Shown here piece after piece: positions 3-5,636 of a stretch of 5,636 nt of DNA; the stretch's first letter is position 1; each line of letters starts with the position of its first letter. The translations under genes and the position numbers were made by a program. The stretch is from a bacterium. GTDB lineage: Bacteria; CAIJMQ01; JAADFP01. The stretch covers positions 1 through 5,636 of the forward strand of contig JALUVB010000283.1 in assembly GCA_027021085.1 (NCBI GenBank), given 5' to 3'. A model generated the notes under the pieces. That model worked only from the letters and a program-made list of their open reading frames with translations. It had not been told where the DNA came from and ran no database searches.

Positions 3-461
3 GAAATAGTAAAGAGAGTATCAATGGATAAACTTTATTACTCTGCCCAAAATGGTAATGACTTATTTAGAAAGATTAAAATATCTCAGTGCGAGTGGAT
101 AAACCTGTTTGGTCATAGCTGGGGCAGTATAGAGATAAATGAGATGTTTAGAGATAACCCTCCTAAATGGTTTAAGAAAGTAAAGTATGTAGTATTCGCA
201 GGCTCTCCGATTGGAATGTATAGTAATGAAAATATAGTCTACACTCCTTTATTTGGATATACAACATATAATTTCTGGTCCGAAGCAGACAGGTTTAGTA
301 ATTATATTGAATCACTTGGAAATAACAACCTTCATATCTCCCATGTTGCTCATGAAGATTGGAACGATTACGAGGCTGAATCATTAAAAGACAATGAAAT
401 TGATAAGGGGGTTTTTAGAAAAAGAAAATATTATGAAGTACTGGAAATATTATTCAAATGA
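3..461 (+). CDS. Alpha/beta-hydrolase (lipase-like) domain, C-terminal part; 5' end outside window
   Basis: The reading frame is open to the left edge, so this is the 3' part of a larger gene. An ATG at 24 exists, but it would begin the protein only about 30 residues before the nucleophile elbow and lose the early strands of the fold, so I do not take it as the true start. Counting from that ATG, GHSWG lies at residues 30-34 with Ser32 the likely nucleophile, preceded by a strand-like segment (EWINLF). A second strand (KYVVFAGSP) follows, then EADRF with a possible acidic residue, and HVAHEDW with a likely catalytic histidine. The family includes esterases, lipases and phospholipases, and substrate cannot be read here. 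Overlap with a small membrane-protein gene, and Rhs tip cassettes downstream, suggest that it is the toxic tip of an Rhs-type protein whose core lies upstream. That link is inference; a free-standing hydrolase is the alternative. Confidence 0.7.
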   Translation, partial: EIVKRVSMDKLYYSAQNGNDLFRKIKISQCEWINLFGHSWGSIEINEMFRDNPPKWFKKVKYVVFAGSPIGMYSNENIVYTPLFGYTTYNFWSEADRFSNYIESLGNNNLHISHVAHEDWNDYEAESLKDNEIDKGVFRKRKYYEVLEILFK

Positions 462-780
462 ACAGGAACTAAAAACAGCTTGGATATTTTCTGCAATTAG
501 CCTTCAATGGATTTTAAGTTTATATGTCCCATTGTTAAGTTGGAGTGATCTTACGAGACTAATCTATTACGAATTACCCAGATCGATACTCGTTAGAAAG
601 ATGTCCTTCCCTATATCTTTCAACATAGTAGCAACGGTGACAATATTTCTATCTCTTTATTATAGCAGGAGAATAAAGAAAAAGAATAGAAAGTTGTTCT
701 TCATGCAAAGCATTTTGTTAGGGAGCTGGATTATAGAAATCTGTATATGGTTGTTCATCTTTGGAGTGTTTAGGCTTTAA
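433..780 (+). CDS. Small three-segment membrane protein, putative immunity partner of the hydrolase
   Basis: From the ATG at 433 this is 115 residues. Hydrophobic stretches at about 16-36, 59-78 and 91-113 predict three membrane segments, with a strongly basic loop (SRRIKKKNRK) between the second and third that should face the cytoplasm. An in-frame ATG at 394 would add 13 residues lying wholly inside the hydrolase gene. Neither start has a strong ribosome site; I prefer 433 because it leaves a shorter overlap (29 bp) with the hydrolase and puts the first membrane segment near the N-terminus. The overlap implies translational coupling. No family is recognised. A small integral membrane protein directly behind a lipase-like domain in an Rhs locus would fit an immunity protein guarding the membrane, but this rests on position only. 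Confidence 0.7.
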   Translation: MKYWKYYSNEQELKTAWIFSAISLQWILSLYVPLLSWSDLTRLIYYELPRSILVRKMSFPISFNIVATVTIFLSLYYSRRIKKKNRKLFFMQSILLGSWIIEICIWLFIFGVFRL

Positions 781-1065
781 ATGAGACACACTGCTAAGAA
801 AGGATGGCTTTTTCTCTGTGTGAGTGTTTTTCTCTCTTTACTTCAATGGTTGGCGTTTTTACTTCTCATTTTCGGTTATGAAGGACATTTCTATAAATTT
901 TTTGAGTTTATCTTTGGTAATGTTCTGCTAAATCTAATAATTTTGTCAGGATTTACATACAGTTGTACTATTGGAGTGCAATCTAGTAATTTAAAGATGA
1001 CTTCCACGAGCATAATTCTATTTCTCTCCTGGAGCACTATTATTTATGGATTAATCTGGAGATAA
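781..1065 (+). CDS. Small three-segment membrane protein, second copy of the same layout
   Basis: This encodes 94 residues. The ATG follows the preceding TAA stop with no gap, and a weak AGG lies 6 bases upstream, so it is probably read by coupling from the gene before it. Hydrophobic segments lie at about 8-32, 45-66 and 75-92, with a basic N-terminus (RHTAKKG). The three-segment layout, small size and aromatic-rich helices match the proteins at 433-780 and 1262-1588. Sequence similarity to them is low by eye and cannot be proved here. No catalytic or ligand motif is visible. It may be another immunity-type protein kept in an array behind toxin tips, or a second subunit acting with its upstream neighbour. 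Confidence 0.65.
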   Translation: MRHTAKKGWLFLCVSVFLSLLQWLAFLLLIFGYEGHFYKFFEFIFGNVLLNLIILSGFTYSCTIGVQSSNLKMTSTSIILFLSWSTIIYGLIWR

Positions 1066-1069
1066 ATAA

Positions 1070-1258
1070 ACAATAAGGGTTGGAGATTCTATTAGTAATT
1101 TCATAGAAAGTTTGTATTTACACAATCTTCACATTCCTAATGTGGCTCATGAAGATTGGAATGACTTCAGTGCTGAATCGTTGGAGAAGAATGTTATAGA
1201 TGAAGGAGTTTTTGTAAAATGGAATTATTATGATTTGTTGATACATCTTTTTAGGTGA
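1070..1258 (+). pseudogene. Remnant of a second lipase-like hydrolase tip (C-terminal end only)
   Basis: No start codon suits this stretch, and the frame is closed by TAA at 1067-1069, but it translates to a clear copy of the hydrolase C-terminus. From SNFIES to the stop it matches the end of the gene at 3-461 at 34 of 54 residues without gaps, including NLHI, VAHEDWND, AESL and GVF, and so carries the putative catalytic histidine. The nucleophile elbow and everything before it are missing. The resemblance starts near 1094 and upstream codons do not match, so the breakpoint lies about there. It ends in TGA 3 bases before the ATG of the next membrane-protein gene, the same order (hydrolase end, then small membrane protein) as at 433. 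It appears to be what remains of an older toxin/partner unit after recombination or deletion. Confidence 0.8.
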
Positions 1259-1261
1259 GGG

Positions 1262-1588
1262 ATGAGAGGTTATATTTTATTTTTGGTTGCTATGCTATTT
1301 CTTTTTGTGCTTATTTGGCCATTTGTTTCACTCTTTATTCTAGGTTCAGACCATTCTTTGGTGGGTAAACCCTTTCTATGGGATAAAATTTTCTGGTTTA
1401 TTCCCAGAAAGACATCCCCCGAAATTGCTATGTTTGTCGTAAAGTTTTTCTTTTATTCCACTATATTTTTAGCTTCACTTTTTTCCCTTCTTTACAGTGT
1501 ACAATACAGAAGGAGAGGCTTGTTGGTTGGGAATGTGATGTTGCTGGTAATATGGGCACTTCTGCTTTTCTCGGGATGGCCGAGTTAA
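1262..1588 (+). CDS. Small three-segment membrane protein behind the hydrolase remnant
   Basis: This encodes 108 residues starting 3 bases after the remnant's stop, with a purine-rich AGGTGAGGG immediately upstream that can serve as ribosome site, although part of it is very close to the ATG. Predicted membrane segments are at about 3-27, 56-80 and 86-105, with a basic loop (QYRRR) between segments two and three. That arrangement resembles the protein at 433-780, where LYYSRRIKKK occupies the same place; here it is LLYSVQYRRR. This suggests distant homology. By position it would be the cognate partner of the hydrolase whose tail survives at 1070-1258, now an orphan. Function is inferred from context only, and no known family is recognised. 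Confidence 0.7.
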   Translation: MRGYILFLVAMLFLFVLIWPFVSLFILGSDHSLVGKPFLWDKIFWFIPRKTSPEIAMFVVKFFFYSTIFLASLFSLLYSVQYRRRGLLVGNVMLLVIWALLLFSGWPS

Positions 1589-1604: not shown

Positions 1605-2573
1605 GTGAATGCCAGATCTCGAGGAGCTAAAAGAAAGCAAGGGAGAAGAAGCACAGCAAATCCCCTCACCTACACCGGAAGGGAATATGATTCCTCTACC
1701 GGGCTTTACTACTACCGCGCCAGATACTATAATCCAGGAGTGGGAAGGTTTATAAGTGTGGATCCGCTGATAAGACAATTCGCCCGCTCTTATGCAGAAA
1801 GCTCTACCCTCTCTGGGGGGGCAGAAAGTTGTGGGAGTTGCGGGGGATTGGGGAGGGGGAGTGTGCCTTCTGCCTCTTCATTTTCTTCTCTTCAGATAAA
1901 ATGGCTGCATCCGTATACCTATGTAAACAACAATCCGGTGAATTACATAGATCCAGAGGGGTTGTTCTTAACATTAGGAGAGCGGTATAGAATAGTTGAG
2001 AATATGGGAGAGGCAATGTTAGGCGAATATCGTCCTGCACAGGCACAACAAGTTGATCTTAGACGAGCTGGTCGGATTGCAGGAAGTACCCTTGAGTGGT
2101 ACGGATTCACCCGGGGAGTTACCTATTACTTTACGATGAACATGTTAAACACAAGCATAACCAATGCTCTGGATGTCTTGTTGGCAAAGTGGATAACAAG
2201 CTGGTATGAGAGGATGATGATAACAAATATATTGCCCGCGGTTATCTCAGGTATAGCAAGGGGGGAATTAAAGGCAGGAAGAGAGGTAATCACACCTTCG
2301 GGACCGCACATTGAGGATGTAGGGATAGGGGAAGTATACTGGGCGATATTCTGGCCGAGTTGTGGAGGGAATGGTAAGGTTTTATTCTTCTGGAGAGCCA
2401 GGGAATTAGAGGAGGAGGCATATGAAAGGGGAGGGATAGAAAAGCCTCGTTTCAGGAGGTTTGGAATAATCCAAGATGTAAGATTTTATCCGAGGTCTAT
2501 TGGCAATCCTCAGGAAGTAAAGAGGATAGGAGTCATAGGGTGGTTATATTACGAGTTCTGGAAAAGGTATTAA
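1605..2573 (+). CDS. Rhs core tip with variable C-terminal domain (putative toxin), cassette 1
   Basis: The first 120 residues are an Rhs repeat-associated core: a basic lead (KRKQGRRS), then YTGREYD, LYYYRARYYNP, GRFISVDP, a Gly/Cys linker with CGSCGG, then YTYVNNNPVNYIDPEGL. In Rhs proteins the core ends at such a DPxGL motif, where autoproteolysis frees a variable toxin. Residues 121-322 form the variable part. It contains GRI (156-158), NMLN (179-182) and IFWPSCG (248-254), which recur in the second cassette, and I recognise no toxin fold or catalytic set. The frame opens at a stop at 1596, and the GTG at 1605 has no convincing ribosome site, so this is probably not a true N-terminus but an orphan tip lacking the YD-repeat body. 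Its 3' end overlaps the next gene by 34 bp. The core is richer in G+C than the variable part, as expected for exchangeable tips. Confidence 0.8.
   Translation: MNARSRGAKRKQGRRSTANPLTYTGREYDSSTGLYYYRARYYNPGVGRFISVDPLIRQFARSYAESSTLSGGAESCGSCGGLGRGSVPSASSFSSLQIKWLHPYTYVNNNPVNYIDPEGLFLTLGERYRIVENMGEAMLGEYRPAQAQQVDLRRAGRIAGSTLEWYGFTRGVTYYFTMNMLNTSITNALDVLLAKWITSWYERMMITNILPAVISGIARGELKAGREVITPSGPHIEDVGIGEVYWAIFWPSCGGNGKVLFFWRARELEEEAYERGGIEKPRFRRFGIIQDVRFYPRSIGNPQEVKRIGVIGWLYYEFWKRY
1634..1964 (+). repeat. Rhs core direct repeat, copy 1
   Basis: This segment is repeated at 3572-3902, offset exactly 1938 bp with no net insertion or deletion. It runs from the basic KRKQGRRS lead through DPEGL. The encoded 47 residues from ANPLTYTG to RQFARSYA are identical in both copies. 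Most changes fall in the Gly/Cys/Ser linker after them. Similarity stops abruptly after the codons for DPEGL, where the variable domains begin. Such blocks are natural sites for homologous recombination that swaps Rhs tips. Confidence 0.9.
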
Positions 2574-3499
2574 TAAATACACTTTTAATCTTTCTTCTTG
2601 TAGGGGGATATCAAGAAGCAAGAGGAGAAGAGGCATTATTTCCTCTTATTAACGGGCTTTTTAGAAGATATTTGGAAATACGTTTTTCTTTACCTCCTAT
2701 CCCAAATAGAATAAATATTGGTAATTACTTTTTAATTAATGAATCATCAAAGCATTATTTTGAGAAATTAGTAAATATGAATGCAACAGAATTATCCCAA
2801 GAAGCAACTAAAAAGGGACTAATTCTATCAGGGAAGTTTGATAGAGAAAAAATTATTTCTCTCTTAATATACCACCATTCTTCTAAATCTTCGATTTTCT
2901 GGGAATATTATCAATTCTTCCCTACGAAGCGGTATAACAAGTTTAACCGAGCTATAGGCTACAGGAAGGGAGATAAATTTATTATTGAGATATTTACAAT
3001 AGGGGGAAAGAAAGCTTTCGAGCGTAGGCTAATACCACTTAATTTCAGGAAAGATGGGAATATCTGGAGCTTTAATGATATAGAAGAATATGGAGATCGT
3101 TTAAAAATAGGGATAGCCTCAGGGATACAGGAATTCACGGTAAAGATAGATAAAAAGATAGTGGGGAGAAAATTCAAGGGGAGGAAGGTAACTCTTTATG
3201 AAGTAATAAGTCCTTCCCGGATAGAAGATCTCTCTTACTTCTGGTATTCTCCAGAGTGTGGTTTAGTAGAGTCTGGGGACAAAAGTTGGGGGCGGATGGT
3301 TCTAATAGAATACTTTCGTCCTGACTTAAAAAAGGGCTGGAGGATAAAGCTTCCTTCAAAAATTATAAAAAGTCTTTATTCTTTCGGAGAGGAATCGCTT
3401 AATAAGAAAATTCGGGACGAAGTAGAGAAAGCCTGGGAAGAGAAAGGATTTAAAGTATTCTATCAACAGGAATGGCCGGAGGAACAAACACAGAAATAA
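2540..3499 (+). CDS. Secreted FPLxxG-motif protein, putative partner/immunity protein of cassette 1
   Basis: This encodes 319 residues from a GTG at 2540, chosen because AGGATAGGAG ends 7 bases upstream and because it gives an intact signal peptide: a basic start, a hydrophobic core (LINTLLIFLLVGG) and a likely cleavage near residue 29 (EARG/EE). No lipobox cysteine is present, so a soluble periplasmic or exported protein is expected. The mature part opens with LFPLING..RRY (33-44), resembling the FPLxxGxxWxY signature of several exported beta-rich bacterial proteins. SLLIY lies at 107-111, a WYSPECGLVE segment at 235-244 and LIEYFRPD at 255-262. All of these have counterparts in the protein at 4421-5395. 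Its start lies 34 bp inside the tip gene, implying coupled translation. An immunity role is inferred from position and from parallel divergence with the tip; it could instead be a secreted effector partner. Confidence 0.75.
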   Translation: MVILRVLEKVLINTLLIFLLVGGYQEARGEEALFPLINGLFRRYLEIRFSLPPIPNRINIGNYFLINESSKHYFEKLVNMNATELSQEATKKGLILSGKFDREKIISLLIYHHSSKSSIFWEYYQFFPTKRYNKFNRAIGYRKGDKFIIEIFTIGGKKAFERRLIPLNFRKDGNIWSFNDIEEYGDRLKIGIASGIQEFTVKIDKKIVGRKFKGRKVTLYEVISPSRIEDLSYFWYSPECGLVESGDKSWGRMVLIEYFRPDLKKGWRIKLPSKIIKSLYSFGEESLNKKIRDEVEKAWEEKGFKVFYQQEWPEEQTQK

Positions 3500-3563
3500 G
3501 GCATAAAAGAAGAAAAAAATTTTATTATTAAAATATTAAAAGCTTCCAGCCTGGGGGGAAAGA

Positions 3564-4424
3564 ATGATGGGAAAGCGAGGGAGAAGAAGCATAGCAAATC
3601 CCCTCACCTACACCGGAAGGGAGTATGATTCCTCTACCGGACTTTACTACTACCGGGCAAGATACTATAATCCAGGAGTGGGAAGATTCATCTCCGTTGA
3701 CCCACTGATTAGGCAATTCGCCCGCTCTTATGCGGGAAGCTCTGCCCTTTCTGGGGGTTCCGGAGGTTGTGGGAGCTGCGGGGGATTGGGGAGGGGGAGT
3801 ATTCCGCAGGTATCCTCTCTTCCCTCAACCCCTCTCCGCTGGCTGCATCCGTATACCTATGTAAACAACAATCCGGTAAACTATGTGGATCCGGAGGGGT
3901 TGTGGATAAGTAGAGGAGAGTTTTATTGGCTTATGCTGAGAAGCTCCCAACAAATTAAAGAATATCTTATAGTCCCCTTTACAGAAGCGGAAAGAATTCC
4001 AGAACTTTGGCCTTTTGGAAGGACAGGAAGGATAACGCAATCTTTCGCAAACAGAATCCTTGGAAAGATTTTTTTCTATAATATGGCAAATCAAATTCCT
4101 CTACCAAAGTGGGCGGGGAAAATTAAAGATTTGGCCCAAAAAATTTACCAATTACTTAATTCTGTTACTAAAAAAAGGATAGAATATGCTAAGGTAGAAG
4201 TCCCATCGTGGAAAGCTACGATACTTATAGCTTGGGACAGATGTGGAGAAATAAGAATGCCGGTATTGTGGTATTCAGAGGAGGGAGAAAACCCCTGGGG
4301 ATATAAGGCGTTTATAGTTGACCTCTGGTCAAAGACTCCAAAAGATATTTCTAAGGTATGGCCTTCAAAGTATAATATAAATCTTCTATATTATTATCCC
4401 CCAGAAGCACTGAAACGAAAATGA
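3564..4424 (+). CDS. Rhs core tip with variable C-terminal domain (putative toxin), cassette 2
   Basis: Residues 1-113 are the Rhs core, nearly identical to that of the first cassette through RQFARSYA, with the same CGSCGG linker and the final YVDPEGL. Residues 114-286 are the variable domain. It has little overall likeness to that of cassette 1 but shares GRI (155-157), NMAN (173-176) and IAWDRCG (222-228) followed by a VL hydrophobic pair, which suggests a common, fast-diverging fold. I do not recognise it. The ATG at 3564 is preceded by a GGGGGGAAAG stretch that could act as a ribosome site, so this tip might be translated by itself, but the frame opens only at 3540 and no YD-repeat body precedes it. 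The last codons overlap the next gene as ATGA. Most likely it is an orphan tip awaiting recombination with a full-length rhs gene. Confidence 0.8.
   Translation: MMGKRGRRSIANPLTYTGREYDSSTGLYYYRARYYNPGVGRFISVDPLIRQFARSYAGSSALSGGSGGCGSCGGLGRGSIPQVSSLPSTPLRWLHPYTYVNNNPVNYVDPEGLWISRGEFYWLMLRSSQQIKEYLIVPFTEAERIPELWPFGRTGRITQSFANRILGKIFFYNMANQIPLPKWAGKIKDLAQKIYQLLNSVTKKRIEYAKVEVPSWKATILIAWDRCGEIRMPVLWYSEEGENPWGYKAFIVDLWSKTPKDISKVWPSKYNINLLYYYPPEALKRK
3572..3902 (+). repeat. Rhs core direct repeat, copy 2
   Basis: This is the second copy of the segment at 1634-1964, collinear with it over its whole length. Nucleotide identity is highest from the AGGGAGAAGAAGCA lead through CGCCCGCTCTTATGC, and again in the stretch encoding LHPYTYVNNNPVNY. 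The part encoding the Ser/Pro-rich linker is the most changed. Sequence after GAGGGGTTG differs completely between the copies. Confidence 0.9.
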
Positions 4425-5395
4425 AAAAAAGTACTTTAATAATCCTATTTTCAATTCTTTCTTTGACGGTATCTTATACCAAAACAATAGGAGAATATCC
4501 AAAAACGGGGAAAGTGATAAATTCTTGGGAGGGTGAACTTTTTCCGTTAATAAATGGTACATATTGGAGATATGTTAACCAGGTAATAGATAAAGATGGG
4601 AAAATTTATGATTTAGATGTATATAAATATCTTCTAATAAGTAGCTCAAGCTATGAATATTATAAAAGAGCAGAGAAATTCTCAAAAGAAGAAATACTCC
4701 AATTGCTGGCTTCCATATATAAAAAATCCAGAAAAGAGATTTTCCATTTAAAGAAAGAACAGCTTTTAAGTCTTCTTATTTATAATTTCGAGCCAAAACC
4801 AGCTGGACCTTTTTATGTATTGCTGTATAAAGACGGGAAAGAAAAGTCCTCTGAAGGTAGAATAGAAATAAAAAGGGAGGGGAAATTTTTAGTCCGTTCT
4901 ACTGTCCATATAAATTACATTAAAAAAGGAGAAAAGCAGATAAAGAGAATTTGGTGGGGAAAGTATCTACCTATAGGAAGGGTAAGTATTGGTCAAAAAT
5001 GGACAAGTGGGAGAAACTCTGGGGATATAGATAAGAGCAAGAACTCTTCAAAGTGGGAGATAGAGTACGAAATTATAGGGAGTGATGTACGAGAAATAGG
5101 TGTAGATAAATTTATATGTTATATAGTAGGATGGTGGACTCTGTCGAAGAAAGATGGGAAATATGAAAAAATAAATTCTTCTCCAAGTCTTAAAATGTGG
5201 ATAGCCCCTAATATTGGAATAGTGGTTGAGGCCAATAACCCACAAGAAAAAATTATAAATAGAGATATTCTTATCGAATACTACCGTCCGGATAAAAATT
5301 TCTGGTGGTATACTTCAGAGAAAATAGTGCCAGATATTCCTCCTTATGTAAAAGGAGTGGATAGAAGGCCCTATCCTCGCCTTACTGATGATTAG
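4421..5395 (+). CDS. Secreted FPLxxG-motif protein, putative partner/immunity protein of cassette 2
   Basis: This encodes 324 residues. The ATG overlaps the stop of the tip gene as ATGA, a classic coupling arrangement, and no good ribosome site is visible. The N-terminus is a signal peptide (MKKS, then LIILFSILSLTVS) with probable cleavage near residues 18-24 and no lipobox cysteine. Matching the protein at 2540-3499 in order are LFPLING..WRY (40-51), a YLLIS..SYEYY stretch (70-81), SLLIY (117-121), WIAPNIGIVVE (260-270) and LIEYYRPD (284-291). The two are therefore diverged homologues. Many Lys, Tyr and Trp residues alternate with hydrophobic ones, which suggests a beta-rich mature domain. 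Being exported, it would meet its target or toxin in the periplasm or outside the cell. An immunity role is inferred from gene order alone; the biochemical function is unknown. Confidence 0.75.
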   Translation: MKKSTLIILFSILSLTVSYTKTIGEYPKTGKVINSWEGELFPLINGTYWRYVNQVIDKDGKIYDLDVYKYLLISSSSYEYYKRAEKFSKEEILQLLASIYKKSRKEIFHLKKEQLLSLLIYNFEPKPAGPFYVLLYKDGKEKSSEGRIEIKREGKFLVRSTVHINYIKKGEKQIKRIWWGKYLPIGRVSIGQKWTSGRNSGDIDKSKNSSKWEIEYEIIGSDVREIGVDKFICYIVGWWTLSKKDGKYEKINSSPSLKMWIAPNIGIVVEANNPQEKIINRDILIEYYRPDKNFWWYTSEKIVPDIPPYVKGVDRRPYPRLTDD

Positions 5396-5398
5396 TAA

Positions 5399-5636
5399 TA
5401 CCCTGGCATGGAAGATACTAATCTCTCTCCCCCCACCCTCATAACCCGCTACACCTATAACAACGCCCACCAGTTAACCCAGAAAGAAAGATTTTTCCAG
5501 GCAGGGAGAAAAAAAACCATCCCTCTCCCTACCACCCTGTTCTCTTATGACGGAGACGGAAACCTGGTAGGGGAAGAAAAGTGGGCAAAAAATGTCTCCT
5601 TGAATAAAAAGGCATACCTCTGGGATTATGAAAACA
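5399..5636 (+). CDS. YD-repeat (Rhs) fragment, running off the right end
   Basis: The frame opens right after the TAA at 5396-5398 and remains open to the window edge. An ATG at 5408 is available, but no ribosome site precedes it. The translation shows YD-type repeat units: RYTYNNAHQLTQ, then LFSYDGDGNLVGEE, then YLWDYEN, the usual lead into an Rhs core. It is more C-rich than the gene before it, like the other Rhs core segments. It begins in the middle of the repeat region, only 3 bp after the last stop, so it lacks the N-terminal body a working Rhs protein needs. It is likely the start of a third displaced tip cassette, longer on its 5' side than the other two. A core and another variable domain should follow outside the window. 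Confidence 0.75.

What the first reader, a model, noticed from the sequence alone, without database searches (positions are those of the whole stretch)
1605..5395. Two tandem Rhs-tip cassettes with an unrecognised toxin-like domain and secreted partner
Core, variable domain and overlapping secreted-protein gene occur twice in the same order. The shared core is almost unchanged while the variable domain and its partner have both diverged strongly, which is the pattern expected of a polymorphic toxin with matched immunity protein. Neither the variable domain nor the secreted protein resembles a toxin or immunity family I know.
Basis: partly seen in the sequence, partly recalled or inferred. Interest (0 to 1): 0.72.

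Follow-up and report, generated by a model that had tools for sequence, protein, structure and literature searches.

The report
Orphan Rhs toxin tips with partners
A little-known bacterium carries a run of spare toxin-tip modules from an Rhs-type weapon, each followed by a gene for an exported, probably protective partner; the system is of a known kind, but the two tip domains and their partner family match nothing in the libraries searched.

Summary
Two cassettes (1605-3499 and 3564-5395) each have an Rhs-associated core, a variable C-terminal domain and an overlapping gene for an exported protein. The DNA repeat ends at the same codon (DPEGL) in both, and in two further copies on contig C17 of the same genome. 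The partners are distant homologues (about 27% identity). The two tip domains are hardly alike (one weak global signal, no local one). None of the four proteins matches Pfam, NCBIfam, PHROGs or PADLOC outside the core. No relative turned up in about 690 genomes searched by profile, nor in motif scans of genome and viral collections or a plasmid search. Best reading: displaced ("orphan") Rhs-CT/immunity modules, a reservoir of toxin tips and immunity genes. Surrounding modules (hydrolase-like, HExxH-peptidase-like, HEAT-repeat and membrane partners) are typical polymorphic-toxin parts. All nine partners examined carry a signal-like or TM segment, so I infer that the toxins act in or outside the cell envelope. 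Toxicity, immunity and cognate pairing are inferred, not shown. The refutation test could not be run, because no homologues outside the window were found. Structure models were too poor to use. Ordinary architecture, new sequence families.

The parts
24..461 (+). alpha/beta-hydrolase-like toxin fragment (GHSWG), C-terminal part of a cassette cut by the contig edge
   Evidence: Abhydrolase_8 E 0.026, below cut-off; its tail recurs at 1082-1252 and on C17
433..780 (+). small membrane protein, likely partner of the hydrolase module
   Evidence: three hydrophobic segments; ORF (ATG 394 or 433)
781..1065 (+). second small membrane protein
   Evidence: two hydrophobic segments
1082..1258 (+). remnant: duplicated C-tail of the hydrolase (HVAHEDWND-like)
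   Evidence: 61% identity to the tail of 24-458; DNA 73% over 112 nt
1262..1588 (+). membrane protein behind the hydrolase remnant
   Evidence: three hydrophobic segments
1605..2573 (+). orphan Rhs tip 1: core 1633-1964, variable domain 1965-2570
   Evidence: TIGR03696 74.2 bits; boundary
2540..3499 (+). partner 1, exported, putative immunity protein
   Evidence: hydrophobic N-terminus; homologue of partner 2
3564..4424 (+). orphan Rhs tip 2: core up to 3902, variable domain 3903-4421
   Evidence: TIGR03696 73.2 bits; boundary
4421..5395 (+). partner 2, exported, putative immunity protein, ATGA overlap with tip 2
5431..5636 (+). YD-repeat part of the next Rhs module, cut by the contig edge
   Evidence: 99.5% identical to C17; RHS_repeat 24 bits

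Best explanation
The span is part of an array of displaced (orphan) Rhs-CT/immunity modules. Each has a remnant of the conserved Rhs core ending at DPEGL, a toxin domain, and an overlapping gene for an exported partner. Shown: architecture, sharp common 3' boundary of the repeat, varying 5' extent, partner homology, hydrophobic N-terminal segments on the partners. Inferred: the core repeat lets recombination load a tip onto a full-length Rhs gene elsewhere in the locus; the tip domain is toxic in or outside the cell envelope of a competitor; the exported partner blocks its own tip. The tips probably lie silent until recombined, while the partner genes have their own starts and may be expressed. 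The weakly similar tips and the clearly similar partners suggest two old alleles of one toxin/immunity family, of unknown activity.
For: Rhs core in both tips. Identical 3' boundary in four copies and different 5' extents, as described for orphan CDI/Rhs modules (PMC3150448; PMC3967940). Neighbouring modules are typical: hydrolase-like, HExxH tip with weak Tox-MPTase3 similarity followed by a membrane protein, HEAT-repeat partner, PLA2-like tip plus membrane protein in a class-level relative G004. All nine partners examined have signal-like or TM segments; secreted or TM immunity proteins for toxins acting at the cell surface are described in PMC3482391. Core dN/dS 0.16-0.43. Both copies of the partner family in the genome lie behind a tip.
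Against: No toxin family hit for either variable domain, and no catalytic motif recognised. No full-length Rhs gene found in the assembly, so delivery is unseen; no type VI sheath gene either. Polymorphic pairs often have unrelated partners, whereas these two are homologous. Signal segments were judged by hydropathy only.
Confidence: 0.78

Rival explanations
1. The tips are translated as they stand and act as small stand-alone proteins with their partners, not as a silent reservoir.
For: Open frames with start codons; a G-rich stretch lies before ATG 3564; core under purifying selection.
Against: ATG 3564 corresponds to an internal Met codon of the repeat in C17; tip 1 has no clear ribosome site and a start outside the repeat; no export signal on the tips.
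Confidence: 0.1
2. The exported protein is the active or accessory part (for example an envelope adaptor or chaperone) and the variable tip is its binding module rather than a toxin.
For: The partners are large for immunity proteins and clearly homologous between the cassettes, while the tips are not detectably alike locally.
Against: The same slot in neighbouring cassettes holds unrelated membrane and HEAT-repeat proteins behind hydrolase- and peptidase-like tips, as expected of immunity genes.
Confidence: 0.07
3. Decayed leftovers with no present function.
For: Hydrolase tail remnant 1082-1258 and YD remnant at the end of C101; one-base difference in a homopolymer of the YD part.
Against: Four ORFs of 286-324 codons remain open in a 38% GC window and the cores have dN/dS below 0.5.
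Confidence: 0.05

Closest known systems
Orphan rhs-CT/rhsI and cdiA-CT/cdiI modules (PMC3150448, PMC3967940)
   Same: Fragment with part of the conserved region, sharp switch to a variable C-terminus, following immunity-like gene, arrays of several unlike modules
   Different: No main rhs gene seen; partners look exported; no type VI sheath gene found; two modules share a partner family
Polymorphic toxin systems catalogued in PMC3482391
   Same: Toxin cassette followed by immunity gene; metallopeptidase, PLA2 and HEAT-repeat classes nearby; secreted or TM immunity for surface-acting toxins is described
   Different: The two tip domains and the partners match no family in Pfam, NCBIfam, PHROGs or PADLOC

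Membership tests
Rhs proteins | Rhs-associated core domain | tested here: met
   TIGR03696 74.2 and 73.2 bits, cut-off 32.5; the match is split by an insertion in the core
Rhs proteins | Long YD-repeat shell upstream of the core | tested here: not met
   Absent from both tips; only fragments on C17, C101 and the window edge. The two ORFs are fragments, not full Rhs proteins
Orphan Rhs-CT/immunity module | Core remnant with common 3' boundary and varying 5' extent | tested here: met
Orphan Rhs-CT/immunity module | Located downstream of a full-length rhs gene | tested here: inconclusive
   Contig edges lie in the repeats; no full gene found in the assembly
Orphan Rhs-CT/immunity module | Variable domain is toxic and neutralised by the cognate partner | not testable with these tools
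   needs expression tests
Type VI-delivered Rhs effector | Type VI secretion apparatus in the genome | tested here: not met
   No VipB/TssC match in G000 or four relatives; genome 94% complete

The most novel reading that the evidence does not exclude
A new envelope-acting toxin family and a new exported immunity family, kept as two diverged alleles in an Rhs module array and delivered without a type VI system in a poorly known lineage.
Probability: 0.4. Interest if true: 0.5.

Novelty: new member of a known kind. Interest (0 to 1): 0.36.

Why it matters
It adds an unrecognised pair of tip and partner families to the polymorphic toxins, and shows an Rhs module array with exported or membrane partners throughout in a sparsely sampled lineage with no type VI sheath gene found. 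Two alleles with homologous partners offer a direct test of how toxin and immunity specificity diverge.

Tried and rejected
Pfam, NCBIfam, PHROGs, PADLOC: only the core or noise for tips and partners. PDB by sequence: the core only for tip 1, noise for partner 2. Motif scans of genome contigs (twice) and viral contigs, and tblastn of plasmids with partner 2: no relatives; the two viral hits for the tips match the core only. Profile search of the partners in 98 + 398 + 195 genomes and of the tip domains in 98 genomes: only the window; the tool warns that an empty answer of this kind is weak, and the profile has only two rows. AlphaFold with two-row alignments: mean pLDDT 34 and 37, not used, so no fold search was made. 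Apparent similarity of tip 2 to partner 1 (local z 3.8) has BLASTP E 0.095: rejected as composition or chance. That the partners resemble exported beta-rich proteins with an 'xFPLxxGxxWxY' motif is a lead from memory without a tool result.

Full report
What is there. The window is the whole of contig C283 of a 1.93 Mb draft genome (307 contigs, 94% complete). Four ORFs fill the span: tip 1 (1605-2573), partner 1 (2540-3499), tip 2 (3564-4424), partner 2 (4421-5395). Both tips match the Rhs-associated core TIGR03696 well above its cut-off, interrupted by an insertion that holds CGSCGG. No library gives anything for the variable domains or partners.

Is it more than chance? The core repeat is gapless and 82.9% identical over 333 nt. 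It ends at the DPEGL codon, where two further copies on contig C17 also end. The 5' ends of the homology differ: 1633 and 3544-3571 in the window, hundreds of bases further upstream in C17. dN/dS of the cores is 0.16 to 0.43. G+C falls from 49-54% in the core to 37-45% in the tip domain and 33-35% in the partner. The partners are homologous; the tip domains have one weak global signal (z 3.3) and no local one.

Surroundings. Upstream in the window lies an alpha/beta-hydrolase-like piece with GHSWG, followed by two small membrane proteins. Then come a remnant of the same hydrolase tail and another membrane protein. On C17 a third, distant hydrolase tail (37% identity) precedes a HEAT-repeat protein with an N-terminal hydrophobic segment. 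A core-bearing tip with HELIH, weakly like Tox-MPTase3, precedes a membrane protein, and another core runs off the contig. C101 holds the 3' end of an unidentified gene and a decayed YD remnant next to what reads as a panC (pantothenate synthetase) gene, named from memory: a likely edge of the array. In class-level relatives, G004 has two Rhs ends, one PLA2-like, each followed by a membrane protein, and G006 has one followed by a lipoprotein-like protein. Thus all nine partners examined look exported or membrane-bound by hydropathy; a fair share of genes in any genome would too, so this is a supporting pattern and not a test.

How it most likely works. Orphan modules of CDI and Rhs loci have a remnant of the conserved region, a functional toxin domain usually without translation start signals, and an expressible immunity gene (PMC3150448). 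In Salmonella, recombination across a shared 522 bp region is thought to load the orphan tip onto the main gene (PMC3967940). The window fits this anatomy. The step beyond it, that the toxins act in or outside the envelope, rests on the partners' location and on the described precedent of secreted or TM immunity proteins (PMC3482391); it is inference. Delivery is unknown: no type VI sheath gene was found in this genome or four relatives, and no full-length Rhs gene was found in this assembly. Repeats that break assemblies may hide it.

What could not be settled. Structure models had mean pLDDT of 34 and 37 and were not used.

Verdict. Observation confirmed; interpretation right in kind, but the modules look like orphans and toxicity is unproven. 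A new member of a known kind.

Noticed in passing
window 24-1588: Alpha/beta-hydrolase-like module with two small membrane proteins, then a duplicated hydrolase tail with a third membrane protein: more orphan toxin/immunity remnants.
   Followed up: partly
L005 1172-2600 (minus strand): Rhs core fused to a HELIH metallopeptidase-like tip, weak Tox-MPTase3 match below cut-off, followed by a membrane protein.
   Followed up: partly
L005 2681-4374 (minus strand): Hydrolase tail overlapping a 483-residue HEAT-repeat protein with a signal-like segment.
   Followed up: partly
window 5431-5636 and L005: Near-identical YD-repeat stretch with a one-base gap in a homopolymer, which appears to shift the frame in the C17 copy: sequencing error or decay.
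   Followed up: no
window 1770-1905 and 3708-3843: Insertion with CGSCGG inside the Rhs core, present in all four copies of this genome.
   Followed up: no
L020 10048-12708: Two tandem Rhs ends with different tips (one PLA2-like), each followed by a membrane protein, in a relative of the same class.
   Followed up: partly
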